From the NCBI RefSeq assembly GCF_023078475.1, contig NZ_CP095741.1, positions 2,728,001 to 2,792,000 of the forward strand: DNA of 64,000 bases. The letters run 5' to 3'. Position numbers and translations under genes: made by a program. The notes under the pieces were generated by a model. That model searched no databases. It was given only the letters and a program-made list of their open reading frames with translations, and was not told the DNA's origin. Positions within the stretch are counted from its first letter, which is position 1. Every line of letters begins with the position of its first letter. Origin of the DNA: Luteibacter aegosomaticola (lineage in GTDB: Bacteria; Pseudomonadota; Gammaproteobacteria; Xanthomonadales; Rhodanobacteraceae). Below, one piece after another: positions 48,982 to 61,025 of this stretch.

Positions 48982-49356
48982 CTATGCGGCCTTAGAACGA
49001 AGGCAGAGACCGAAGTCCCCGGCCTCGTCGTCAATCACATCCTCAATCCAGAACTCGACTCCCGGAAATTCAGATGCCACCTTGGCTGACCAGGCGCTAC
49101 GGACAATGGACAAAATCGCCTGCGCCGCAGGGTCATCCGATTCCCAATCGTCACCACAGACCTCAGTGATGAACCGCTCCAGGAATACCGTGTTCATGAA
49201 CGCCTGAGCGACGTCAACGGAAGGATTGCGGCCGATCCGTTCGCGGAGAGACGTCTCTGACGTTGACCCGTCCTTGAAGAAGACCAGCCCATCGATCATC
49301 ACCACCGGGGGAAAAATGTGGTCTAACCAGTACGCGAGTTGATGCAAGATCATCAT
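48982..49356 (-). CDS. Hypothetical protein, 124 residues
   Basis: A small protein (ILHQLAYWLDHIFPPVVMIDG, then ERFITEVCGDDWESDDPAAQA and EFWIEDVIDD) without signal peptide or membrane helix. Its C-terminal acidic part and small size are like those of many immunity-type proteins; no family is assigned. The terminator at 48.8 kb follows. Confidence 0.5.
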   Translation of the reverse strand: MMILHQLAYWLDHIFPPVVMIDGLVFFKDGSTSETSLRERIGRNPSVDVAQAFMNTVFLERFITEVCGDDWESDDPAAQAILSIVRSAWSAKVASEFPGVEFWIEDVIDDEAGDFGLCLRSKAA

Positions 49357-49533
49357 GGGTCGTCCTTGTACTACTTCGGTTTAGGGCTGCCATGCGAAAC
49401 GTGCGACGTTCAATACGCCAAGGCAGGCTCTTCTGTTCAGCGGGAACCCCTGTACTGCAATGGACGAGATCGACGCCGCATTGTACGAAGGCACCAGAAA
49501 GCCGGATCAGTCCGCCACTAGGCGGACGATGGC

Positions 49534-49785
49534 CTAGCCCACCTGAACCACGCCGCGCATTGCCTCCCAGCTCATCTGCGCCCTAGCCTCCCCCAACTGC
49601 CTTGTCCCATGCAAGGTCATCGCCGCGATGGCTTCCAGGGAAAGAGCCAGGTGCTTGCAGTCGACCTTGTCGGCTTCGTGGATCAGGTCCGCTAGCGTGG
49701 CGGTGACGCCGCGGGCGTATTGCAGCCACAGGGTGGCGTCGTTCAACAGGTCGTGGGTGGTTTGCTGTTCGTTGGGTGTCGTCAT
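49534..49785 (-). CDS. Small helical protein (DUF3077-like)
   Basis: An 83-residue helical protein from ATG 49785 (THDLLNDATLWLQYARGVTA, then HLALSLEAIAAMTLHGTRQL). The pattern resembles small proteins of the DUF3077 type that are often preceded by structured leader DNA. The upstream region here (49861-50240) is unusually rich in hairpins. The frame from 49860 adds an unconvincing N-terminus. Confidence 0.55.
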   Translation of the reverse strand: MTTPNEQQTTHDLLNDATLWLQYARGVTATLADLIHEADKVDCKHLALSLEAIAAMTLHGTRQLGEARAQMSWEAMRGVVQVG

Positions 49786-50030
49786 GTCGCTCGTCCTTCT
49801 GCCATGCGTCCGCGCTTTGACGTGGCACGACAGGCACACACCTGCCATGCCACGGACCATAGGATCGCGGGTTCACCGGATACCCGTGTCCGGGTGCCGG
49901 ATGGCTTGATTGATGAAGTGAGTGCGGTGATGACCGTCCATGAGGTGCACCAGGCGTCACGCCTGCCTCATTCGATCAAGAATTACCTCAAAGATGGGAC
50001 TCGCCGCGGTTCTTCAACCGTGCCTACAGG

Positions 50031-50114
50031 TTAGGCAGGCGGTCCGTTGACCGGTGAGGTGTCGCCGGGGGGATTCGGCGGGCGAGCGAGTGCCGTATGA
50101 TCTGGGGTAGCCAT
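50031..50114 (-). CDS. Possible 27-residue leader peptide
   Basis: On the minus strand, GAGG lies seven bases before ATG 50114, which opens a 27-codon frame (MATPDHTALARPPNPPGDTS at the start) rich in Pro, ending at TAA 50031. It could be a leader peptide for the helical protein downstream. Hairpins at 50007-50020 (loop CTTC) and 49941-49970 follow it. Confidence 0.4.
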   Translation of the reverse strand: MATPDHTALARPPNPPGDTSPVNGPPA

Positions 50115-50144
50115 AATCAACCTCGATAGAGTTGGTTTTGGTTA

Positions 50145-50240
50145 GCGGGTCAGGGGTGTTGGTAGCACCTCTGGCTCGCGACTTTCACCGCGTGGAGCGG
50201 TGGTCACCAGCGCAGGGCAGATGGTGTGTGCGCTGGTGAC
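50145..50240 (+). ncRNA. Three tandem hairpins suggesting a structured RNA on the plus strand
   Basis: Hairpin 1 (50145-50179) has a 14-bp stem around TTGGTAG. Three of its pairs are G-T/T-G wobbles as plus-strand RNA but would be A-C mismatches on the minus strand, so the folding RNA is the plus strand. Hairpin 2 (50186-50202) is CACCGC-GTGGA-GCGGTG. Hairpin 3 (50203-50240) is a perfect 12-bp repeat (GTCACCAGCGCA) with a 14-base loop, adjoining hairpin 2 directly. No coding frame or T-run fits, and no named RNA class is recognised. Confidence 0.5.
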
Positions 50241-50457
50241 GTGGGGAACGTAGCAGATTGCGTGTGGGTTGTGTTCACGCATGCGGCACGTAGCTTAGGT
50301 GCTCGTTGCCATGGCTAGGCAGAATGCAGACTGTTCGATCTAGACCGCCTCAGGTGCGACGGTTGATAGGTGCTCGATGCATTTTGACTTGACCGGCCTT
50401 TTTCAGAATGCCCTGAACAACGAACACGTGCTTACCACGAACAAAGGGGACAACCAC

Positions 50458-51075
50458 ATGAAGACCGCAAGGACCATTGCCTTGGTAGCGATCAGCATGG
50501 CGGCCGCGTTAGGAATGCCGGCGGCCGCTGTCGCACAGACTGCGACCACTACAACGGACTCCGCCGATGTCTACAAGGCATTCCTGCATCACTGGAGGGG
50601 CAAGAACCGCCAGCCCATCAACGTGGCACGTGTTGCTGAGCCGATGCACCCCGAGGGCGAAGATGGCGGTTGCGAGGGCCATCCCGATATCGAAGCCCTC
50701 ATCAAGAGCCCCGCTGAACGCATCGACGATCTCAGCCAGGTGCTCGGGCCAGACCCGTCCATTCACTATGTCGATCGGTCGACCTGGCACCCTACTGACC
50801 CGCAGCACATGATCGATCAGGGAAAGAAGGTCGACGCGGCCGTGAATGCAGGCATGTCAGCGGCCTTACTCACCTTCTCGGCGATCGCCTTCAACGAGCA
50901 CCGCGACGTGGCAGTCTTCAGATATGGCTTCGTTTGCGGCCGTCTGTGCGGTAGCGGTGCTATCACGGTCATGCGCAAGAATGGCAGCATATGGGAATCC
51001 GATCCCCGGCAGTGCGCCCAGTGGATATCCGAGACGATGCCGCTTGATCGTCAGCTGCGCATTGCCCGCAGGTAG
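50458..51075 (+). CDS. Secreted protein of unknown function
   Basis: A 205-residue protein from ATG 50458 with a signal peptide (about 1-26, AALGMPAAAVAQ). The mature part contains a conserved-looking pattern with four cysteines near the C-terminus (FVCGRLCGSG, DPRQCAQW), which may form disulfides. The first 27 codons upstream of the ATG are non-signal and rejected. No family is recognised. Confidence 0.6.
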   Translation: MKTARTIALVAISMAAALGMPAAAVAQTATTTTDSADVYKAFLHHWRGKNRQPINVARVAEPMHPEGEDGGCEGHPDIEALIKSPAERIDDLSQVLGPDPSIHYVDRSTWHPTDPQHMIDQGKKVDAAVNAGMSAALLTFSAIAFNEHRDVAVFRYGFVCGRLCGSGAITVMRKNGSIWESDPRQCAQWISETMPLDRQLRIARR

Positions 51076-51194
51076 GCCGAGGCCGAAAAGCCGGAAATGC
51101 ATCATGCGCGGGAAATCAGAAGCCCGCGGGGGTTTAATCGGCCGACGCCACGCCACACTCGCGCCGCGTGGATGTCAGGCGTTGGTCGTGCCGC

Positions 51195-51674
51195 CTACTT
51201 GTTAAGAGAGAAGTAACCGACGAGGGCCTTCCCATCGGGCATCGTCTGCGACTGCGCCACGGCGATCACCTGGCTATTGGACAGGCGCCAGAAAGACGAG
51301 GCCACGGGCTCTTCCGCACTAACCTCCTTCGCAATTTCCTTAGCGTGGTAGGTGTCGGAAAGGCGATTGTTGAGCTCGGCGTGCAGCACGATCCATTGCG
51401 GCCCGATTTTCGGTACGTACCCGACGAACACGAATACCCGCTGCCCCGTCACCTGATATCCCCTGGCTTTCGCTTGCGCAGTGACTCCCCGGACGAAAGC
51501 GGTTTGCTCTTGAGGGTAGGTGTCGGCCCCTATTGGCGTCCTCGGGCTGTAAGCGATGCTGACGGGCAGTTGGTCGAGAGACATGTGCGTGTCCGTGGCG
51601 AGGGACGAGCAAGCCGCGCCCCCAAACATCAGTGTGACCGTAGCGAGGGCGATAGAGCGTGCAAACGTCTTCAT
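51195..51674 (-). CDS. Lipoprotein of unknown function
   Basis: A 159-residue lipoprotein (lipobox GGAAC at about residue 22). The mature part (FVFVGYVPKIGPQWIVLHAEL, then SSFWRLSNSQVIAVAQSQ) is beta-rich and without a known family. It lies on the minus strand, convergent to the secreted protein at 50458. Confidence 0.6.
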   Translation of the reverse strand: MKTFARSIALATVTLMFGGAACSSLATDTHMSLDQLPVSIAYSPRTPIGADTYPQEQTAFVRGVTAQAKARGYQVTGQRVFVFVGYVPKIGPQWIVLHAELNNRLSDTYHAKEIAKEVSAEEPVASSFWRLSNSQVIAVAQSQTMPDGKALVGYFSLNK

Positions 51675-51798
51675 GTCATCGCATCATCACTGGGCCGGTC
51701 GGACCGTAAAGGTCCTGATCCGTGAGATCGCTCACTGCGCACTCCCTGGCTTAGACTGACCATCCGGACCTTACCCACCCTCAGACGCACAGGCAACC

Positions 51799-52041
51799 AT
51801 GGACGCCAAACCGATGATACGCGCCGCCTTCGCCCTCATCAGCTTGGTTTCGACCTCACTTCTGGCATGTGCCATATCAGCTCACGAGACAACCCCGTCG
51901 CCCGCGCTCGCTCACACCTCGACAGCCGCTGCACGCTCCCACGTTGATCACGACCAAACCATTACCGCTGCCGCCCACGACCAGGCGCTGCTGCCCGGCG
52001 CTCGCGATGGCGCTCAATGCGTTCTATCCCTGCTTGCCTAA
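51799..52041 (+). pseudogene. Truncated paralogue of the secreted protein at 52174
   Basis: An 80-residue frame with a signal peptide, ending ALLPGARDGAQCVLSLLA and then a stop. The same segment in the gene at 52174 (ALLPDARDAGGRVLAFLS) continues for 145 more residues, so this copy has lost its C-terminal part. Confidence 0.55.
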
Positions 52042-52173
52042 GGTGGCAAAGACACACCCAGTGACATCGCAGGGCTAACAGAAGGTCATGGCTGACAAGG
52101 GGAACCCCCAGGGTCCATTCGGGAGCTTCAAATACACAACTTGCTATACGGATCCCACGGAGAAGGAATTCAA

Positions 52174-52845
52174 ATGCTGCGCACGACTGTCAGGATCGCT
52201 AGCCTTTCCGCAACACTTCTATTGGCGTGTGCCGCGCTGGCGAGCGAGCCGACCGGCCCTCAGGCCACCAGCGCTCGCACCGCTCCCACACGCCCTTCCG
52301 CTGTTGAGGGCCATGCCAACGCCGTTGCCACTTCACCGGCACTTCTGCCTGATGCGCGCGACGCCGGAGGACGCGTCCTGGCCTTCCTATCCGACGTGTC
52401 GTCGACGGCCGCCTTCACGCCAGCTGGGATCGGCCGAGCCATGGACGTTACGCTGAACCCAGACCCCAACAACGATCGCGGCTGGGCCGCCTACCACAGC
52501 CCTGATATCGGCTACGGCTGGACCTATTGGGTCCAGTTCGCTGAAGGCGAGGCCACGATGAAGCCGGGGTTCCGCTTTTGGTTTGCTCATGACGACCGTG
52601 CAGCCAACGCAGCCCCTGTGTGCGCCCTTCCCTTGGACCAAGTGCGAAGGACGCTCGCGGCTCACGGCTGGTCCGAGCGGCAGCTCCCCTCGGAACTCGC
52701 GGGCATCCGGGCCATCGAATTCACCCGAGGCGATGTGGTGCTGACGCTGACGCCACGGGATGGTGCAGACGTGAACGGCACGGCCTGTGTTCTGTCGCTG
52801 CAAACTAACGATGGTCGTCCCGCAGCTCCTCAGCGCTCGTCGTAG
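52174..52845 (+). CDS. Secreted protein of unknown function
   Basis: A 223-residue protein from ATG 52174, behind AGAAGGAATTCAA, with a signal peptide or lipobox-like LLACAALAS. The mature part has pairs of conserved-looking segments (DRGWAAYHSPDIGYGWTYW, RAIEFTRGDVVLTLTPRDG) and two cysteines. No family is recognised. It is the intact partner of the truncated copy 133 bp upstream. Confidence 0.6.
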   Translation: MLRTTVRIASLSATLLLACAALASEPTGPQATSARTAPTRPSAVEGHANAVATSPALLPDARDAGGRVLAFLSDVSSTAAFTPAGIGRAMDVTLNPDPNNDRGWAAYHSPDIGYGWTYWVQFAEGEATMKPGFRFWFAHDDRAANAAPVCALPLDQVRRTLAAHGWSERQLPSELAGIRAIEFTRGDVVLTLTPRDGADVNGTACVLSLQTNDGRPAAPQRSS

Positions 52846-52873
52846 GCCATCCTTAGGAAAAGGATCCATAGAT

Positions 52874-53440
52874 ATGCGGAACAAAACCAAGGTGGGCCTG
52901 CTATTCGTCATTGCCATCTCCATTGGCGCGGCTGTGCACGGCATATTCAGGCCTCACACCGTAAAGGGCGCGTTTCCCGTGACAGTCCCTTTCGCCCTCG
53001 ATGCTGTGGGGAACAGTGTCACTATCCCGTTCGACATCGATAGCGGCAATGTGGATGCTAAACGGCACGTCATGATCGGCATAGATGTACCCGGTTCGGC
53101 AGACTTTCCGGCGGTCGAGGACGTCCGAGTCAACACCCGGCTGCTTCGGGTCCGTGTCTGTTACGACGACCATGGAACTCATGTGCCTATCGAGACCGAG
53201 GACACCGAGACGATCATCGCCAGGAACACTGGGAAGGCACGCCCCCGTACGGACTCGACGGTGTGTCGTCTTCATCTCTATGCGAGTGTCGATGATCAAG
53301 CGAACCTCTCGGCCTGTGGCTTCTACGCCAAGCGCGATGGGCATTACGTTGCGGAGGTTTCGACCATCGAGCCGATGCCCGCATTCAAGGGCGTCGCGAC
53401 TACCGCACGCGTAGACGACTATTACAACACCGGGGAATAA
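52874..53440 (+). CDS. DUF5625-like secreted protein
   Basis: A 188-residue protein from ATG 52874 with an N-terminal membrane/signal helix (about 5-22). The pattern FPVTVPFALDAVGNSVTIPFD resembles DUF5625 proteins, which are periplasmic or lipoprotein-type and of unknown role. It overlaps no neighbour and follows the preceding gene on the same strand by 28 bp. Confidence 0.55.
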   Translation: MRNKTKVGLLFVIAISIGAAVHGIFRPHTVKGAFPVTVPFALDAVGNSVTIPFDIDSGNVDAKRHVMIGIDVPGSADFPAVEDVRVNTRLLRVRVCYDDHGTHVPIETEDTETIIARNTGKARPRTDSTVCRLHLYASVDDQANLSACGFYAKRDGHYVAEVSTIEPMPAFKGVATTARVDDYYNTGE

Positions 53441-53453
53441 TGGAGAGGTGTAC

Positions 53454-53849
53454 ATGAACCACTGGATTGCCGGCACTGGACTGTTCTTCATAGCCATTGC
53501 TGCCGCACACGGGCAAGAAGCGTCAGTCGCCGAAAAACCATTGCGGCCGGCCTATTACACCTGCGTCAAAGCCGCCCACGGCGTGACACTGGCGCTCAAT
53601 GACTGCATCGGCAGTGAGCATAATTTCCAGGACAAGCGGTTGAACTCCGCGTATCAGCACCTGCGCACGAGCCTCAACAGCGACCAGCGCACGGCACTGC
53701 GTGACGAAGAGCGGGCCTGGATTGCCCAACGCGACAAGGCCTGCGCGCCAGACGAAGACGGCGGCACCGCCAGCCTGCTGGACGCTAACCAATGCCAGCT
53801 CGATCAGACGGCAGCCCGGGCGGCCGTCTTGGAAGGCCGAATCAGGTAA
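53454..53849 (+). CDS. Secreted LprI-type protein (DUF1311)
   Basis: A 131-residue protein from ATG 53454 with a signal peptide. The domain has the four-cysteine helical pattern of LprI (YYTCVKAAHGVTLALNDCIG, NSAYQHLRTSL, EERAWIAQRDKAC, ANQCQLDQTAARA), whose members include lysozyme inhibitors. It is 13 bp from the DUF5625-like gene and likely cotranscribed. It might protect against a cell-wall-degrading enzyme. Confidence 0.8.
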   Translation: MNHWIAGTGLFFIAIAAAHGQEASVAEKPLRPAYYTCVKAAHGVTLALNDCIGSEHNFQDKRLNSAYQHLRTSLNSDQRTALRDEERAWIAQRDKACAPDEDGGTASLLDANQCQLDQTAARAAVLEGRIR

Positions 53850-53949
53850 GCGTTGCCAACACCCCACGCGACGAGTGCTTTACGCATCTGCGAGCCACGG
53901 ACGATCGGTAAGCGACAGGTCGTCTCTGATGGCACTACACCACCCCAAG

Positions 53950-54348
53950 CTACTTCACGGGATGGATATTCGCCGCGGGCTGTCCGCCAAGGTCGAGACC
54001 GGTAAGTCCGCACTCGGAGAAGCTGATGCCGTACGCGTAGTTACTTTTCTTGAATATTCCAGTGACTTTGACAAGCGCCCCACTCTTTACGAGCCTTTCG
54101 TCGCCGAGATCTCCGACATTCAGAAGGCTGAGGCAGCCGGAATCGGCCTGCCAAAAATCGCCCTGATAGCCTTTGACAGTGGTGACGTACATCGCCTCTG
54201 GACCAATGTCCAAATAGCCCTGAACAGTCACCTCCTTCGCGTCGTAAGCATCCTTCGCTAGATTGACGGAGCGGATATCAACTTCGGTTTCCGCAGCAAC
54301 AGCCGTCGAACAACTGATCGCAACAACGGCGAGAACGACCTTTTTCAT
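53950..54348 (-). CDS. Secreted OB-fold-like protein
   Basis: A 132-residue protein from ATG 54348 with a signal peptide (about 1-19). The mature part (DAKEVTVQGYLDIGPEAMYV, then GALVKVTGIFKKSNYAYG) has the beta-strand spacing of a small OB fold. No family is named. It is on the minus strand, convergent to the LprI gene. Confidence 0.55.
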   Translation of the reverse strand: MKKVVLAVVAISCSTAVAAETEVDIRSVNLAKDAYDAKEVTVQGYLDIGPEAMYVTTVKGYQGDFWQADSGCLSLLNVGDLGDERLVKSGALVKVTGIFKKSNYAYGISFSECGLTGLDLGGQPAANIHPVK

Positions 54349-54473
54349 CGCATTCAGAGTGGCTACCACATCACACTCCTGCCGCTACCATTTAACAAAT
54401 CGAGTGGGCGACGATACATCCCTCTTCGTCACACTCCCCCTCAGGGCCCAATCTGAACGCGCCCGCCAACGTT

Positions 54474-54926
54474 CTAGTGGCCCGTCTTGGCTGATCTGGT
54501 CGATAGTGTTCGTTTGACTTCGTCATAGGCTGCCTTCGCCTCTTTCATGGGCGCCGAATTTCCGCAGTTGTCCACGAAGGCGTCCGTCGGCGTCTTAATG
54601 ATGAACAGCAGATTGGGCACACCCAGGTCCATGGGATAGCGCGCCGACGTATTCTCGGAATAGAGCCACAAACTCTTCGGCGCCGGCCCTTTGAGTACCT
54701 CGTTCACCTGGACAACGTAGATCGTGAAGATGTAACCCACGGGATCGTCAGGATCGGGGACCAAATGTTCTTCTGTGGCGGTTCCGACCACCACCATGGA
54801 GCTGTCGTGGGCTTCCTTCGCTATGGAGGGCTGCGCATCCAGGCAAGTGGCGAATGTAGCGCCGGGCATCAGGGACACCAGCATCCATGCGCAGGAGCAG
54901 GCAATGGGGCGAATCGGGCGGTTCAC
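54474..54926 (-). CDS. Secreted protein of unknown function
   Basis: A 150-residue protein with a signal peptide (about 1-26) and a mature beta-rich part (MVVVGTATEEHLVPDPDDP, IYVVQVNEVLKG) loosely reminiscent of tissue-inhibitor-of-metalloprotease-like domains. Two cysteines (TCLDAQ and NCGNS) are present. Function unknown. It is the last of the small secreted genes. Confidence 0.5.
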   Translation of the reverse strand: MNRPIRPIACSCAWMLVSLMPGATFATCLDAQPSIAKEAHDSSMVVVGTATEEHLVPDPDDPVGYIFTIYVVQVNEVLKGPAPKSLWLYSENTSARYPMDLGVPNLLFIIKTPTDAFVDNCGNSAPMKEAKAAYDEVKRTLSTRSAKTGH

Positions 54927-54996
54927 TGGGTGTCCCCTAGGCAGTTGACGTTGTCTGGAATCAAGCTCGAGGTCCCCGCCGAAGCGCCTGGCTAGT

Positions 54997-55260
54997 CTAC
55001 TGAACGATTGTCATCGGATCCCTCGCACGCGCGCGACTCGATGAGGTGTCGCAACCATAACCGTCCCGCGGGCGGGCCATATCAGCCTCTGAGACGTGAT
55101 GGGCGATTCTCTCTTCCGGTGACATGCCTCGCCAGGCGTCGAGATCGACGCAATGCTTGTCTACGGCGCCAGCGAGGCTACCTATTAGCCGTACTGCACC
55201 TGAGATGCCCTGGCTTCGTGAGTCAACCATCGGTAGCCGCGGCGCATTGGCCTGACGCAA
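54997..55260 (-). other. Poorly supported frame in a gene-poor stretch
   Basis: The stretch 54927-55583 holds no convincing gene. One minus-strand frame of 87 codons (54997-55260) contains VDKHCVDLDAWRGMSPEERI, which looks protein-like, but the start and end are weak. A plus-strand frame at 55008-55409 is judged a shadow. The stretch may be decayed gene material. Confidence 0.2.
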
Positions 55261-55583
55261 CGCACCGGGGAGGCGAACTTGCGCCTTTGCACGATTGCCA
55301 GCGGATTGGAATAAGGTGCCGCTGGCAAAGCGACGCCCCCACCTCGCAGCCTACGCCTACCCGCAACGCACGGCTTAAAGCGCGTCTCCACCCAACAGCC
55401 CTGCCTTAATTGAGGGATACCGACCTTGATCCAATCGACTGGATTGCGCCGACCACCATTCGTACTTACGATGCCGCCATTCCTGCGCGATGTCAGACAT
55501 CAGGACTCATTGGCCGCTTTGCCGTGCGTCGTAAGGCACTCCATGCTCAGCATTTCCACGAACACTTCGTAGTGGAGAAGTTA

Positions 55584-55994
55584 TCAGTGAGGGGGCGGGT
55601 CGAGCGCGCTGGAAAAGACCCCCAGCAACAGCCAGGTGCCGCAGGCAAACGACAAGAGGGCAAGAACGTCAATGGCCACATCGAGCCAGGCTTGATTGTT
55701 CACCCACGCCCAGACTTTGTACCAGCAATTGCTCTTGAACGCCTCATCTTCCACGCCACGGTACATGTACCAGGCGGCCCACTTGTTGATGAGGGCACCG
55801 GCGACCTGGAGAATCACGCCGCCAAGAAAGAAAAAGACAATGCCCCTGGCGTGACCGGAGTCACCGATGGCCTTGGCGACTTTATCGTTGGTGAGAAACA
55901 CCACTGGGCCACCGATGCCGTAGGCGACCATCCACGCGCGGAAGGTCTTTGAGTATTCGGCATAGTTGGCGTAGTAGATCTCGGGGTCCGGCAT
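55584..55994 (-). CDS. Membrane protein of unknown function
   Basis: A 136-residue protein from ATG 55994 with about three membrane helices (WMVAYGIGGPVVFLTN, GIVFFFLGGVILQVAGAL, VLALLSFACGTWLLLGVF). It follows a small basic protein gene on the same strand. No family. Confidence 0.55.
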   Translation of the reverse strand: MPDPEIYYANYAEYSKTFRAWMVAYGIGGPVVFLTNDKVAKAIGDSGHARGIVFFFLGGVILQVAGALINKWAAWYMYRGVEDEAFKSNCWYKVWAWVNNQAWLDVAIDVLALLSFACGTWLLLGVFSSALDPPPH

Positions 55995-56026
55995 CTTATC
56001 ACCCGTCAGTCCATTCGCCGGCGACC

Positions 56027-56230
56027 TCACCGGAATAGCGCCCGCAGGAGGGGCCAGAGACTGACCGTGGTCCGCGCATACGAACGGCTGTAGGCCGCAT
56101 TCCGTGGATTGGTGAGCCAGCCGCACCCATGTGGCGCATTGACAGCAAGCGAATAGGGGATCATGCGCTTGACCGCCATGAGTGCCGCAAGGGATTTCTT
56201 CAACGATGGTGTGCGGATGCCGATTTTCAT
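56027..56230 (-). CDS. Small basic protein often found near accessory genes
   Basis: A 67-residue protein (MKIGIRTPSLKKSLAALMAV at the start, then GWLTNPRNAAYSRSYARTT) of a type I recognise as a recurrent short hypothetical protein in accessory DNA of many bacteria. It has many basic residues. Role unknown. It is 33 bp upstream of the membrane protein gene, 163 bp downstream of the phosphoesterase-NTPase gene. Confidence 0.6.
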   Translation of the reverse strand: MKIGIRTPSLKKSLAALMAVKRMIPYSLAVNAPHGCGWLTNPRNAAYSRSYARTTVSLWPLLRALFR

Positions 56231-56392
56231 GTGTTTACCTCAGTCAATGCTGCATTCGTCGTTGTCTGAGGCACACCCGGCGCCCGCGTTCCACACCACT
56301 CCTCCGTCGACAATTGCCCGACACCGACGATTTCGGTGCCCGTATCCTCTGCCGCGGGGGAGCCGCCGGTCGCTCCAACAGCCCCCAGCTCC

Positions 56393-59300
56393 TCAACCAC
56401 GTCCGATCCTCCGCTGCGCGAGCGCCTGGAACGGAAGTGACTCGATACGGAAGCGGTCGAGAACGGCCCGTTTGAGCTCCTCTCGCACCGGAAAGAGGTA
56501 AAAGCGCCTCAGCAGGAACCGGCGCAGCACCGACTGCGGCAGTGGTGGCGCATGCCGAAGGGTGTCTTTCTCGAACTCCAAGACCTTGTCGGCGGGGAAG
56601 TCCGAGAAATGCTCAAGGGTTGTAATGAGCCTGAGCAGACGGCGCGTGTCAGTCCCGCCGAGGACGTCATCCAGGGTACGGGTAAGCGTCTCGGACCCAA
56701 CGGCATTGGCAATCTTGATGAGCGTGCCCACGGTCGTTGACGACACAAACGATGGAAGATACGTCTCGAGCATGCGAGTGATGTCGGTCTCAGTGAGCTC
56801 CGGGTCTTCCTTCCTGAGCTGAATGGCACGGAAGATGAGCATCTCGTTGCCATTTTCACCCATGAATTCGTGCAGGAACGACAGGATGCGAAGGCCAAGG
56901 GCAACGCAGGTGTCGGCCATGCGTGCCTTCTCATCGCGCTCGATCTCACCGGCATGGTTGCGCAACACTTGGCCGAGGACCTGTAGCGTCTTGAACGCGC
57001 CATTCATGGCGAGGGCGTCATTGAGACGCTGCTGCAGGCGTTGCTCAGTCACGTCGTAGACGTCGCGCTGGGCGCAGTCGGCGTCAACTTCGTCCTGGTG
57101 ATGGGACTCCAGCTCAAGCGTGCGGCTACCCGTCAACAAGACATGGCGGACATTGCCCGGGCTGAGGTCCGGTAGCGGCCCCTTGCGATCAAAGAGGTCC
57201 ACCTCGGGCTTTTCGGCAAAGAGGCCTTCCGCGTGAACCAATATCTTCTCGGCGATTCGGACGTCACGCTGGATGTGGGCGAGGAACAGGAGAACGTTGG
57301 CAGAGCGTTCTGTGTGGATGGACGCGACCAGCGCGTCAATACGGGGCTCGAGGCGCACCCAGTCCGTTTGCGACAGATGCCTTGCAAAGAAGTAGTAATA
57401 GTGGAACTCGTAGCAGAAGCGGACACATGACCCGCTTTCGTCGAGTAGGTCCGCTGCCACGAGCTGGGCCTGCATGGTGCGCAGCGATAAGCCGAGGTGG
57501 AACCGTTCGCAGTGGGCGACATGGAAGCGCTCGAACTCCTCCTGGCTCAACTGCTCGCGCCCGAGCGCATCGAGATGGGCAGCAAACGCAACGAGATATG
57601 CTTGGGATGTCACCACATCGCACGCCGAGACTTTCTGGAGCGCAGTGAGGATCATCGACTCGTAAAGGAAGCCATGCGAACCGCTCTGGACGACGGTATC
57701 AAGGTCCTGGGCAAGTTCTGCCCGCTGCAGGATGATGAGCACGAACACCGGCAGCGCCGGAAGCAGGTTGCGGCCAAGGGTCTCATCGACAACCTTGCAC
57801 AGCTTAGCAGCCACGATCTTGCGCGGGTCATCGTTGCGCAAGGGCTCGGCACCAATGGCAATCCAGCGCTCGATGAGTTCCATGCGGTGGGATGCCTTGC
57901 TGGGTAGCAGGTCAAACAGCTCGGTGTCGCTGAAGTGCTCGCTTGCAAGGAATTCCTCGAGGGCAACCTCCATGCCGGGGTAAGCGTCGACCATGAGGTA
58001 GATGGTGCCGAACTGGCGGGCCAGCAGGCGGACCCCTTCGGCAAACCCGGTCTTGAGCTGTGGCAGGTCGAAATCGTCGATGACCAGCGCCCTAGAGGCG
58101 GGCGGTAGCTGGCGATAGACATCCCGTGATTTCTTCCCGTAGAAGAGATCCACCGCCTCGTCGAACCGCTCTTCGAGCGCGCGTTCGCGCCAGCTGGAGA
58201 CATGCGTCGCCGAGAAATAAATTGGGTGAACACCCGATCGCTGCATGCCAAGCATCATCATCTTCGCCAGGGAGGTTTTTCCATGGCGCTCGCCGCCACG
58301 AATGATGACCACCGGGGACCGCTTACCCGAGACAAGGGACGCCGCCGGGATGACCAATGCGTCCGTGAGCAGCTGGCCAGTGTCCTTTTCGGGCCTGCCT
58401 GGTTTGATGTCAGGCCATACGTAGATGTCTTGGAGCCTCAGCTTCTCGACTCGACGATGCGTATAGTTCGCACCGGGACTGGACAGGAACCCAAGGCCGT
58501 CAGCCGATAGGCTCAGCGCGCCAGCCGCGCGGCCCGGCCACATGAGCATCTCCGCCTTCGAACGCTCCTCCCAGAGTCCGTAGTGGTCTCCGCGCCAGGC
58601 ATACGCCCTCGGCTGGTATCCGGTTTCCTGGTCGAGATAAATGGTCTGGAACGCACTCTCGTCGGGATGCTTCGCATCGTGGAAGACATGCGCATGGAGA
58701 TACACCATGCTTGCATCCTCGTGCAGGTTCGACACGCGTTCAGCCGTATTGATGTGCTCATGGCCCATCAAGAACAGGTCGCCAGCCAACGGGGCCCACT
58801 GGGCCAATGGCCAGTGACTTTCCGGTGTGAGCCAGTTGAGGGGGTGGTGCATGACCAACACCGTCCGGCGACTGCCATCGTAGTCGAACGCCGGCGTCGG
58901 CATGTGCAGCTTTCCTGCCACCTCCTTGAGCCGGGAAGTCACGGCCGAGTGCAGAACGACATAACGGACAGAGCGCAACTCATGGACGGTCAACCACGGC
59001 CCCTGATCGTTCCCGGTGGACGTCCATTGCCGGGCGAAACTGCGGTAGTTCCCGAGCACCGAAGCGACACCCTCGGCAATACCGTCGGTAATGGCATTCG
59101 GCGCTGTTTCGATGTTCTTGAGCAACACGTCGCGGACCGATTGATCCTTCGCCGAGAAATCACAGTCGTGATTTCCGGCGGCCAGCACATGCACTGGCTT
59201 GCTGCCAGTCCTATCAAGGATGGCGCTGTCGAGTGCCGCGAGAAACCGGCCGGCGGCCGAGAAATCCCCGACTGCCCCCGTTGATGCGATGTCACCACTG

Positions 59301-59434
59301 ATGACGATATGCACCTCGTCAACGTCCATCAACGGCGACAGCGCTGCGCTCGTCACCTTGGCGGCACGCTCTTCCAGTCCAGGCACCTTGTCGTCGAGGT
59401 GCATGTCGCTCAGATGCAAAATCAAGATACCCAC
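56393..59434 (-). CDS. Calcineurin-like phosphoesterase fused to a STAND-type NTPase (candidate anti-phage protein)
   Basis: A 1013-residue protein. Residues 1-280 are a calcineurin-like metallophosphoesterase with all metal motifs: Asp10/His12 in LSDMHLDD, Asp48 in SGDIAS, GNHD at 87-90, a metal His in VLVMHHPLNW (196-197) and GHEH at 224-227. From about residue 375 a P-loop NTPase follows, with Walker A GGERHGKTS (380-388) and Walker B ALVIDDFD (453-454), as in STAND proteins. Residues 600-1013 are helical, probably the sensing repeats. In STAND immune proteins, target binding by the C-terminus drives NTP-dependent oligomerisation and switches on the N-terminal effector, here probably a nuclease or nucleotide phosphoesterase. 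Target and effector activity are unknown. The cyclase-like gene lies 286 bp upstream on the same strand. Confidence 0.85.
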   Translation of the reverse strand: MGILILHLSDMHLDDKVPGLEERAAKVTSAALSPLMDVDEVHIVISGDIASTGAVGDFSAAGRFLAALDSAILDRTGSKPVHVLAAGNHDCDFSAKDQSVRDVLLKNIETAPNAITDGIAEGVASVLGNYRSFARQWTSTGNDQGPWLTVHELRSVRYVVLHSAVTSRLKEVAGKLHMPTPAFDYDGSRRTVLVMHHPLNWLTPESHWPLAQWAPLAGDLFLMGHEHINTAERVSNLHEDASMVYLHAHVFHDAKHPDESAFQTIYLDQETGYQPRAYAWRGDHYGLWEERSKAEMLMWPGRAAGALSLSADGLGFLSSPGANYTHRRVEKLRLQDIYVWPDIKPGRPEKDTGQLLTDALVIPAASLVSGKRSPVVIIRGGERHGKTSLAKMMMLGMQRSGVHPIYFSATHVSSWRERALEERFDEAVDLFYGKKSRDVYRQLPPASRALVIDDFDLPQLKTGFAEGVRLLARQFGTIYLMVDAYPGMEVALEEFLASEHFSDTELFDLLPSKASHRMELIERWIAIGAEPLRNDDPRKIVAAKLCKVVDETLGRNLLPALPVFVLIILQRAELAQDLDTVVQSGSHGFLYESMILTALQKVSACDVVTSQAYLVAFAAHLDALGREQLSQEEFERFHVAHCERFHLGLSLRTMQAQLVAADLLDESGSCVRFCYEFHYYYFFARHLSQTDWVRLEPRIDALVASIHTERSANVLLFLAHIQRDVRIAEKILVHAEGLFAEKPEVDLFDRKGPLPDLSPGNVRHVLLTGSRTLELESHHQDEVDADCAQRDVYDVTEQRLQQRLNDALAMNGAFKTLQVLGQVLRNHAGEIERDEKARMADTCVALGLRILSFLHEFMGENGNEMLIFRAIQLRKEDPELTETDITRMLETYLPSFVSSTTVGTLIKIANAVGSETLTRTLDDVLGGTDTRRLLRLITTLEHFSDFPADKVLEFEKDTLRHAPPLPQSVLRRFLLRRFYLFPVREELKRAVLDRFRIESLPFQALAQRRIGRG

Positions 59435-59720
59435 TGTGATCCCCCTGTCCCCGGGGCTCCCCAGCCCCCATCACATCATCAACGTCATCTGATTCTACGG
59501 GAAGCCTCCGGCCGCAGATCCCTTGATGCAAATTCGGCAATACCTAGCCTGGGACATCGTCGTCATCGAGGGCATCGATGCGGATGCCCGTTTTGAACAG
59601 AAACCCGATGACCGCAGGAGTGTGAGCGTAGGCAATAAGCGTGCGACTGCGAGCACCGACCTGCCGGAAGCCTCTGAAGCCAGCAAAATGTGCATTGCAG
59701 GATGTTCGCCGCAACTATTA

Positions 59721-60470
59721 TTAGTCACCAAGCTGATTGTGAGGAACAAAGCCAACAACCCCCTCGCGAACCAGTCTGTCTATCAGCCCCTTAGGGACAA
59801 GTTGACGGCGCTCAGTGACGGCTTGATGGAGCGCTAGAAACCAAAGGTATTTTTCTTTATGAGCCGGATTCGATGCCATCAAGCTCTGGGCGCGGTTGCC
59901 GGCTGAAAGCAGCCAATATCGATTGAACGGGTTGACGATGTTTCGGTCCCTAAAATGCAAAAGAGGCGTGACTACTACCGCATCAGGATCGCCGAGCAAC
60001 TGCGGATACCAAAGCTCATCGGCAAGCTCAATGTCGTCCGCCAGCATAACGGCAGGTATCGAAACCATGCTTTCTAGTTTCACCGCTCGGACTAAAGCAT
60101 CACTAACCACCAACAGGTCGTTACCGCGCTTACGCTCCCAATATCGTCCCTTCGCAATTCCGCCCCTCAGCATAAGGTCAGAGGCGAGAGCAAAGAACCA
60201 AATTCCTTGAACAGCCTTTAGGACCGGCCTAAGCTCCTTCCCGACGATCAAGATGGAATCTGAGTACATGGTGATCTTTACCTCGCTCGAGGCGAAGATA
60301 TCTTGACCCAACAACCGAGCCAGGCCCTTATAGATCTCCAGAGTCCTATCGAAGTCGGACGCAACCATGCTCGAGAAACCAAGAATGTCGCAGAAGGCGA
60401 CATAGTGCAGTTCGGAGTCTTCGGGCAGTGTCGTCTGGTCGAAGCTCTCGTCGGAATTCGTCTTCTGCAT
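59721..60470 (-). CDS. Class III nucleotidyl cyclase-like protein
   Basis: A 249-residue protein from ATG 60470, behind GGGGAG. It has the class III cyclase core: first metal Asp28 in FCDILGFS, second Asp71 in MYSDSILIV (43 residues apart, as in known cyclases), and the following strand LRGGIAKGRY. The usual Asn and Arg of the catalytic helix appear replaced (LVRAVKLES), so activity or nucleotide choice may differ. It has no membrane helix and its base composition looks more AT-rich than its surroundings. It lies upstream of the phosphoesterase-STAND gene on the same strand; whether the two are one system is inferred from position alone. Confidence 0.65.
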   Translation of the reverse strand: MQKTNSDESFDQTTLPEDSELHYVAFCDILGFSSMVASDFDRTLEIYKGLARLLGQDIFASSEVKITMYSDSILIVGKELRPVLKAVQGIWFFALASDLMLRGGIAKGRYWERKRGNDLLVVSDALVRAVKLESMVSIPAVMLADDIELADELWYPQLLGDPDAVVVTPLLHFRDRNIVNPFNRYWLLSAGNRAQSLMASNPAHKEKYLWFLALHQAVTERRQLVPKGLIDRLVREGVVGFVPHNQLGD

Positions 60471-60788
60471 TTTGCAACTCCCCAATTCGTATCTGTTGTC
60501 CGTGGAGGCATGCTGCCGTATCGAACGATAATTTGGGGCCGGCTAGTCGCCGCCGACCCGACCTCCGCGCGCTGCTCATCCTTTGCAAGCATGTGCAGGA
60601 GCCCCTCGCGCGGACAGACCAGTACCTGCCCCTGACCGAGCCACCGCGTACGGCCTACGCACCGCGTGACCTGAGCACACCATCGACCGTAGCCGTTCGC
60701 TGGCAGGGATATCTTCGTGGGAACGAATATAGGGATGAGAAATTTCTTCCCATAAAATCCACATGATTCATGGACTTATTCGCATTTC

Positions 60789-60828
60789 TGGCGGAGAGAG
60801 TGGGATTCGGCGGACTCACTCTCCGCCA
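60789..60828 (-). other. Sequence like a tRNA-Ser 3' end (possible attachment-site remnant)
   Basis: On the minus strand, CGAATCCCACTCTCTCCGCC plus A (60809 down to 60789) matches the last part of a typical tRNA-Ser gene, from the T-loop to CCA. Upstream of it lies an inverted GGCGGAGAG copy, so the segment folds on itself and no full tRNA is present. It lies at the edge of the accessory region and may be an attachment-site scar of an integrated element. Confidence 0.45.
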
Positions 60829-61025
60829 ACGCCTCGGGCCAATTTCAGGTGTACCGGAATGTGTCCCGGATCGTAACTTCCCTGCCCGGTCTGTCAAGCA
60901 ATCCAAAAGAAGATCCCGGCCGGTCCCTTGACGAACTCCCAGACCAGGGTAAGTTGAATTCAGACGGAGCCCATTTGCCGCCGGTCAGGTGGTTTAGAAA
61001 TTGATGCTGATGCTGCGTCGACAAG

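What the first reader, a model, noticed from the sequence alone, without database searches (positions are those of the whole stretch)
56393..60470. Calcineurin phosphoesterase-STAND NTPase next to a class III cyclase-like gene: candidate defence system
The 1013-residue protein keeps every metal-site motif of a phosphoesterase and the Walker A/B motifs of a STAND NTPase, the design of NLR-like bacterial immune proteins. A 249-residue cyclase-like protein with both metal aspartates 43 residues apart lies upstream on the same strand, at the edge of an accessory region. Cyclic-nucleotide signalling next to a STAND effector with a phosphoesterase domain could make a two-part abortive-infection system. 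The 286-bp gap leaves open whether they are one transcript.
Basis: partly seen in the sequence, partly recalled or inferred. Interest (0 to 1): 0.82.

Follow-up and report, generated by a model that had tools for sequence, protein, structure and literature searches.

The report
DS-8-like antiphage protein, unrelated cyclase neighbour
The large gene is a distant cousin of DS-8, a recently tested single-protein phage-defence system that joins a phosphate-cutting enzyme to an immune-type switch; the small cyclase-like gene next to it appears to be a chance neighbour from a gene family often found in viral DNA.

Summary
Both genes exist as described. The 1013-aa protein matches, end to end, the NCBIfam model of the antiphage protein DS-8 (681 bits; curated cut-off 790). 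DS-8 is a published one-gene defence system, metallophosphatase plus NACHT (PMC13092281, passages). The window protein keeps the phosphoesterase metal motifs and intact Walker A and B. Of seven family relatives (neighbours of five scanned), three sit beside Septu, Lamassu or retron genes, and the same STAND half occurs fused to TIR domains. I read it as a divergent DS-8-like protein acting alone. The 249-aa neighbour has a confident class III cyclase fold and both metal aspartates but lacks the canonical asparagine. None of 56 other cyclase loci (many near-copies) held a DS-8-like gene, and none of 12 DS-8-like loci held this cyclase, within the flanks at hand. The two-gene abortive-infection idea is therefore not supported. 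Side findings: one DS-8-like clade lost the Walker A lysine, and one cyclase clade is paired with a ParA-type ATPase. Known kind, new member.

The parts
56393..59434 (-). DS-8-like metallophosphatase-STAND protein, 1013 aa, GTG start
   Evidence: ORF; NF053861.1 DS8_antiphage, residues 7-997, 681.4 bits, cut-off 790; PADLOC candidate PDC-S60, 159.9 bits over residues 313-983
58751..59422 (-). calcineurin-like metallophosphatase domain (residues 5-228), predicted effector
   Evidence: PF00149, over cut-off; motif residues identical in 8 of 8 sequences, window included
58271..58297 (-). Walker A motif GGERHGKTS (residues 380-388), lysine K386 present
57389..57553 (-). nSTAND_NTPase4 match (residues 628-682), part of the STAND/NACHT module
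   Evidence: PF24406, over cut-off
59435..59720 (.). 286-base intergenic gap; no promoter-like or terminator-like match by consensus scan
59721..60470 (-). class III cyclase-fold protein, 249 aa; D28 (codon 60387-60389) and D71 (codon 60258-60260) are the metal aspartates; probably an independent neighbour
   Evidence: PHROG 23933, unknown function, E 9.7e-13; neighbourhood counts

Best explanation
The 1013-aa gene is a stand-alone, DS-8-like antiphage protein. The C-terminal half is inferred to sense a phage product. The central STAND/NACHT NTPase would then bind ATP and assemble the protein, and this would switch on the N-terminal metallophosphatase, which hydrolyses a phosphoester (possibly a nucleotide) and stops infection. 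Shown here: homology over the whole length to DS-8, intact metal and P-loop motifs, the same STAND half fused to TIR in other proteins, and defence genes beside some relatives. Shown elsewhere for DS-8: defence as one protein, lost when the metallophosphatase or the NACHT domain is mutated. Inferred: that this member defends, its trigger, assembly and substrate. The cyclase-like gene is a separate member of a family scattered through viral contigs and genomes and is not part of the system.
For: Full-length DS8_antiphage match, 681.4 bits; 7 full-length relatives in 6 other genomes of the family score 752-1106 with the same model, 6 of 7 over its cut-off. DS-8 is a single-protein system whose metallophosphatase and NACHT residues are both needed (PMC13092281, passages). 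The two nearest relatives lie beside PDC-S11 and PtuA (L016) and directly downstream of LmuA-LmuC-LmuB (L017); L020 lies beside a retron VII reverse transcriptase and an integrase. The same STAND module is fused to TIR in L105, L106, L127, L128 and in L130, L131, L132 (the same gene as L105) and L134. No gene other than the DS-8-like gene recurs in more than 2 of 11 loci compared. Cyclase absent from 12 of 12 DS-8-like loci.
Against: The score is below the curated DS-8 cut-off (681 against 790), and the nearest relatives are only about 34-35% identical, so function may have drifted. None of the window's own neighbours scanned is a known defence gene (10 proteins, Pfam only; not scanned with PADLOC). 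Neighbours of 2 of the 7 family relatives (L018, L021) were not scanned, and L019 and L022 gave only weak partial matches. The structure model of this protein was too poor to use (pLDDT 52.7). No experiment on this protein.
Confidence: 0.78

Rival explanations
1. Two-part system: the cyclase-like protein makes a nucleotide signal on infection, and the phosphoesterase-STAND protein reads or degrades it.
For: Same strand, 286 bases apart, both inside a stretch that one relative lacks; cyclase fold with both metal aspartates; the DS-8 authors write of a cyclic nucleotide, not yet identified, as what DS-8 degrades.
Against: No co-occurrence in 12 DS-8-like loci or 56 other cyclase loci. DS-8 works as one protein. 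The cyclase lacks the canonical asparagine.
Confidence: 0.06
2. Both genes are defence genes, but independent: a small defence cluster in a variable region, the cyclase family being a prophage-spread defence or superinfection gene of its own.
For: Cyclase relatives are frequent in the viral collection (39 loci, many near-copies) and lie in varied gene contexts; the large gene is DS-8-like.
Against: No PADLOC model matches the cyclase; I know of no defence assay for its family; the other genes of the variable stretch that I scanned have no Pfam family or look like small secreted proteins.
Confidence: 0.3
3. The STAND-phosphoesterase has another cellular role (for example regulation), not defence.
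For: STAND proteins include regulators (general knowledge); no direct test here; below the DS-8 cut-off.
Against: Whole-length similarity to a tested antiphage protein, patchy distribution (8 of 233 genomes of the family, the window's own included), and defence genes beside three relatives.
Confidence: 0.12

Closest known systems
DS-8 (DefensePredictor system; NCBIfam NF053861 DS8_antiphage)
   Same: Same order of domains over the whole length: metallophosphatase, then STAND/NACHT, then C-terminal region; single gene.
   Different: Score 681 bits against a cut-off of 790; placed in a clade with L016-L018, apart from the relatives that score highest with the DS8 model.
TIR-STAND proteins with the DS-8-type STAND module (L105, L106, L127, L128, L130, L131, L134)
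   Same: Same STAND and C-terminal half (NF053861 positions from about 289-298 to 993-994).
   Different: TIR domain in place of the metallophosphatase (Pfam, for L130, L131, L132 = L105, L134 and L106; RefSeq annotation, for L127 and L128).
DS-9 (NCBIfam NF053862 DS9_1_antiphage)
   Same: Metallophosphatase domain is distantly similar (26.7 bits).
   Different: DS-9 is a two-gene system with a HAD phosphatase; far below the cut-off of 420.
Pycsar cyclase PycC (cUMP synthase, PDB 7r65)
   Same: The neighbour's model finds it among class III cyclases (Foldseek E 8.8e-6).
   Different: No match to PADLOC models; on a plasmid, the gene overlapping an annotated Pycsar effector (annotated hypothetical, PycC-like by my reading) scores -0.5 bits with the neighbour's profile; no Pycsar effector among the window neighbours scanned.
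Class III adenylate/guanylate cyclases (e.g. Rv1625c, PDB 7yz9)
   Different: The asparagine position (V127, assigned by me from the recalled motif) is not Asn in 24 of 24 sequences, and the arginine position (131) is Arg in 4 of 24; no Pfam match.

Membership tests
DS-8 antiphage protein (NF053861) | Full-length match to the family model | tested here: met
   residues 7-997 to positions 1-994 of 994, E 1.9e-204
DS-8 antiphage protein (NF053861) | Score over NCBI's curated equivalog cut-off (790 bits) | tested here: not met
   681.4 bits; so called DS-8-like, not DS-8
DS-8 antiphage protein (NF053861) | Metallophosphatase metal-binding motifs | tested here: met
   all present, identical in 8 of 8 sequences, window included
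DS-8 antiphage protein (NF053861) | NACHT/STAND NTPase with P-loop | tested here: met
   GGERHGKTS and ALVIDDFD; nSTAND_NTPase4 over cut-off
DS-8 antiphage protein (NF053861) | Acts as a single gene, no fixed partner | tested here: inconclusive
   no neighbour recurs in more than 2 of 11 loci, which is consistent; function not assayed
DS-8 antiphage protein (NF053861) | Protects against phage, needing both domains | not testable with these tools
   published for DS-8, no assay of this protein
DS-8 antiphage protein (NF053861) | Structural likeness of the metallophosphatase to SMPDL3A | not tested
   own model too poor (pLDDT 52.7)
Class III nucleotidyl cyclase (neighbour gene) | Cyclase homology domain fold | tested here: met
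Class III nucleotidyl cyclase (neighbour gene) | Two metal-binding aspartates | tested here: met
   24 of 24 aligned sequences, window included
Class III nucleotidyl cyclase (neighbour gene) | Transition-state Asn and Arg (positions assigned by hand from the recalled motif) | tested here: not met
   Asn 0 of 24, Arg 4 of 24; the window has Val and Lys
Pycsar system (neighbour gene) | PycC model match | tested here: not met
   no PADLOC match at E up to 1
Pycsar system (neighbour gene) | Adjacent Pycsar effector gene | tested here: inconclusive
   the adjacent gene is the metallophosphatase-STAND gene; ten further window proteins were scanned with Pfam only

The most novel reading that the evidence does not exclude
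The cyclase-like gene belongs to a widespread family, not described in what I could find (paper searches, listings only; PHROG 23933 of unknown function), of class III cyclase-fold proteins carried by viral contigs and bacterial genomes, with an altered active site (S70-D71, A129 and K207 identical in 24 of 24 sequences, no canonical Asn) and, in one clade, a fixed ParA-type ATPase partner; it could be a prophage nucleotide-signalling or superinfection system separate from Pycsar.
Probability: 0.3. Interest if true: 0.62.

Novelty: new member of a known kind. Interest (0 to 1): 0.33.

Why it matters
It adds a divergent member to a newly tested defence family and widens that family's sequence range. 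The comparison raises two testable points about DS-8-like proteins: the switch half is shared with TIR proteins, and one clade has lost the Walker A lysine although a NACHT residue was reported as essential in DS-8.

Tried and rejected
Two-gene abortive-infection system: rejected on the neighbourhood counts. Pycsar: no PycC model match and no sequence likeness to the PycC-like gene of the Paenisporosarcina plasmid. That plasmid does hold a DS-8-like gene with an annotated Pycsar effector about 3 kb away; I read this as two systems on one plasmid. Sequence searches of solved structures: nothing for either protein alone; the cyclase-family profile gave only matches that look like chance (best E 0.72); the profile of the large protein gave RecA-fusion and weak phosphohydrolase matches. 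Structure of the large protein: I used only window, L108 and L109, in line with the tool's stated list of sources; the model was poor and no fold search was made with it. Two further viral scans with L109 and L108 returned only those loci again. Finding the E. coli DS-8 by DNA similarity with L104 gave no match. Short direct repeats around the large gene look like chance.

Rows dropped or not followed: one match (L014/L026) is an EAL-domain protein and was not counted; the short G194:C6 match (L043) was not given flanks; L133 (pieces at contig ends) and L135 (match to positions 1-791) and the partial plasmid matches were not examined for neighbours; the 24-row cyclase alignment leaves out near-copies and the weaker matches.

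Papers: one search found DefensePredictor, read in passages. One search found no other paper holding both 'SMPDL3A' and 'phage defense'; 108 ('PDC-S60') and 99 (STAND, antiphage, metallophosphoesterase, TIR) gave none; of 101 and 114 I saw only the listings. Searches and look-ups failed.
Full report
What is there. The window holds two genes on the minus strand: 56393-59434 (1013 aa) and 59721-60470 (249 aa), 286 bases apart. A purine-rich, ribosome-binding-site-like stretch precedes each start (read by eye). A consensus scan found no promoter or terminator in the gap; its one promoter-like match (60870-60897, minus strand, upstream of the cyclase-like gene) is no more than shuffles give (mean 1.5).

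The large gene. Pfam finds Metallophos and nSTAND_NTPase4, both over cut-off. NCBIfam finds DS8_antiphage over the whole length, 681.4 bits against a curated cut-off of 790. PADLOC finds its candidate family PDC-S60. DS-8 is described in the DefensePredictor paper (PMC13092281; I read passages): a single-protein system with a metallophosphatase related to human SMPDL3A and a NACHT domain; [quoted passage not shown] what it degrades is not identified. The window protein has the same layout, with the metal motif residues identical in 8 of 8 aligned sequences (window included) and an intact P-loop. Because it misses the equivalog cut-off I call it DS-8-like rather than DS-8.

Relatives. In 233 genomes of the family, 8 have a match: 7 of these, the window's own included, hold full-length relatives (8 proteins; 7 besides the window's), and one holds only the phosphoesterase part. 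The 7 besides the window's score 752-1106 bits with the DS-8 model, 6 of 7 over the cut-off. In 369 genomes of the class, 5 match: the window's own, one more full length (L104, 1073.5 bits), two TIR-STAND (L105, L106) and one weak (L107). Two plasmids carry one, in the second case split over two reading frames (L125, L126). So the gene is patchy, as expected of defence genes.

Neighbours of relatives. I scanned 10 neighbour proteins, chosen by eye, from five of the seven family loci with PADLOC (L016, L017, L019, L020, L022; none from L018 and L021). Three loci gave strong matches: PtuA of Septu and PDC-S11 (L016), LmuA, LmuC and LmuB of Lamassu directly upstream (L017), and a retron VII reverse transcriptase (L020, which also has an integrase). 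L019 and L022 gave only weak partial matches (64 bits to mad2, 34 bits to E1-E2), and two of the ten proteins none. The two nearest relatives of the window protein are L016 and L017. In 11 loci compared (10 with the full-length gene, window included, and L023), no other gene recurs in more than two; the shared ones are one distant gene in L017 and L022 and three genes in L021 and L023. That fits a one-gene system.

Swapped effector. Several proteins share the STAND and C-terminal half but carry a TIR domain at the front: L105, L106, L127, L128 and L130, L131, L132 (the same gene as L105) and L134. In a 16-row tree of the STAND half the four TIR rows used fall together (83/84 support, not strong) among phosphoesterase rows (the tool warns of long branches and of unlike composition, the window row among them). 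This supports the view that the front domain is an interchangeable effector and the rest a sensor-switch.

Walker A. Of 16 STAND rows, 12 keep the Walker A lysine, the window included. The four that lack it (Ser in L019, Arg in L020, L021, L022) form one clade (100/99). These four score 940-1106 bits with the DS-8 model, but so does L104 (1073.5), which keeps the lysine. Whether the tested E. coli DS-8 belongs with them I could not learn: a DNA search with L104 found nothing in E. coli genomes, and the passages I read name no residue.

Where the small gene's relatives are. A scan of the viral collection gave 39 loci, nine at 42-51% identity; one genome locus, in Paraburkholderia sp. C35, is 55% identical. 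PHROG 23933, of unknown function, matches (E 9.7e-13). No match in the plasmid or phage-record collections at E 1e-5. In the class sample 5 of 369 genomes matched, the window's own included and one of them an EAL protein. A profile search found matches in 15 of 233 family genomes, the window's own included, several weak. In a 40-row tree the window protein lies in an 11-row clade with nine viral-contig rows and L011 (100/100). I did not verify for each viral contig that the gene lies inside the phage part.

Are they partners? A profile of the small protein found no relative in any of 12 DS-8-like loci (L016-L022, L104/L122, L108, L109, L125, L126; flanks from none on one side, or a 5.2-kb contig, up to about 10 kb). 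A profile of the large protein found no DS-8-like gene in 56 small-gene loci other than the window (17 from genomes with flanks mostly 8-10 kb; 39 viral with flanks of at most 5 kb, some almost none, and many near-copies: the tree keeps 39 distinct proteins besides the window's over 60 bits). One 17.8-bit match in L011 was not followed and is too weak to count. Three of the 17 genome loci (L118, L120, L121; 52-54 bits) are weak family members. G057 has a relative of each gene, but on different contigs. In the same genus, G104 lacks both genes at the matching place: nothing aligns to window 53441-60790. That fits joint or separate gain and does not decide. Six of the 57 small-gene loci (L024, L110, L113, L054, L055, L057) have a ParA-type ATPase gene directly upstream of the small gene, and these six form one clade (95/85); the window has none. 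The family's only recurring partner that I saw is therefore something else.

Verdict. The defence reading of the large gene is right but known in kind. The two-part signalling reading is unlikely. Mechanism: trigger sensing by the C-terminal half, NTP-driven assembly, and metallophosphatase activity that stops infection; only the homology, motifs and neighbourhoods were shown here, and the need for both domains was shown by others for DS-8.

Noticed in passing
L019, L020, L021, L022 (Walker A at the position of window residue K386): One clade of DS-8-like proteins has Ser or Arg in place of the Walker A lysine, while 12 of 16 related proteins keep it.
   Followed up: partly
L054, L055, L057, L024, L110, L113: A ParA/AAA_31-type ATPase gene lies directly upstream of the cyclase-fold gene in six loci that form one clade (Pfam run on four of the six); I found no description of such a pair (paper search 114, listing only).
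   Followed up: partly
L105, L106, L127, L128, L130, L131, L134: TIR domains fused to the DS-8-type STAND module.
   Followed up: partly
L125 (NZ_CP038016.1 12677-27472): A DS-8-like gene, restriction-modification genes and an annotated Pycsar effector with an overlapping PycC-like gene (my reading) lie within 15 kb on a Paenisporosarcina plasmid.
   Followed up: partly
L017:5754-12666: A DS-8-like gene directly downstream of LmuA-LmuC-LmuB on the same strand.
   Followed up: no
window 56379-56403 and 59462-59486: A 25-base imperfect direct repeat (80%) brackets the large gene; probably chance.
   Followed up: no
window 48982-56126: Small, mostly unassigned proteins, one of them LprI-like, partly rearranged relative to G104.
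   Followed up: no
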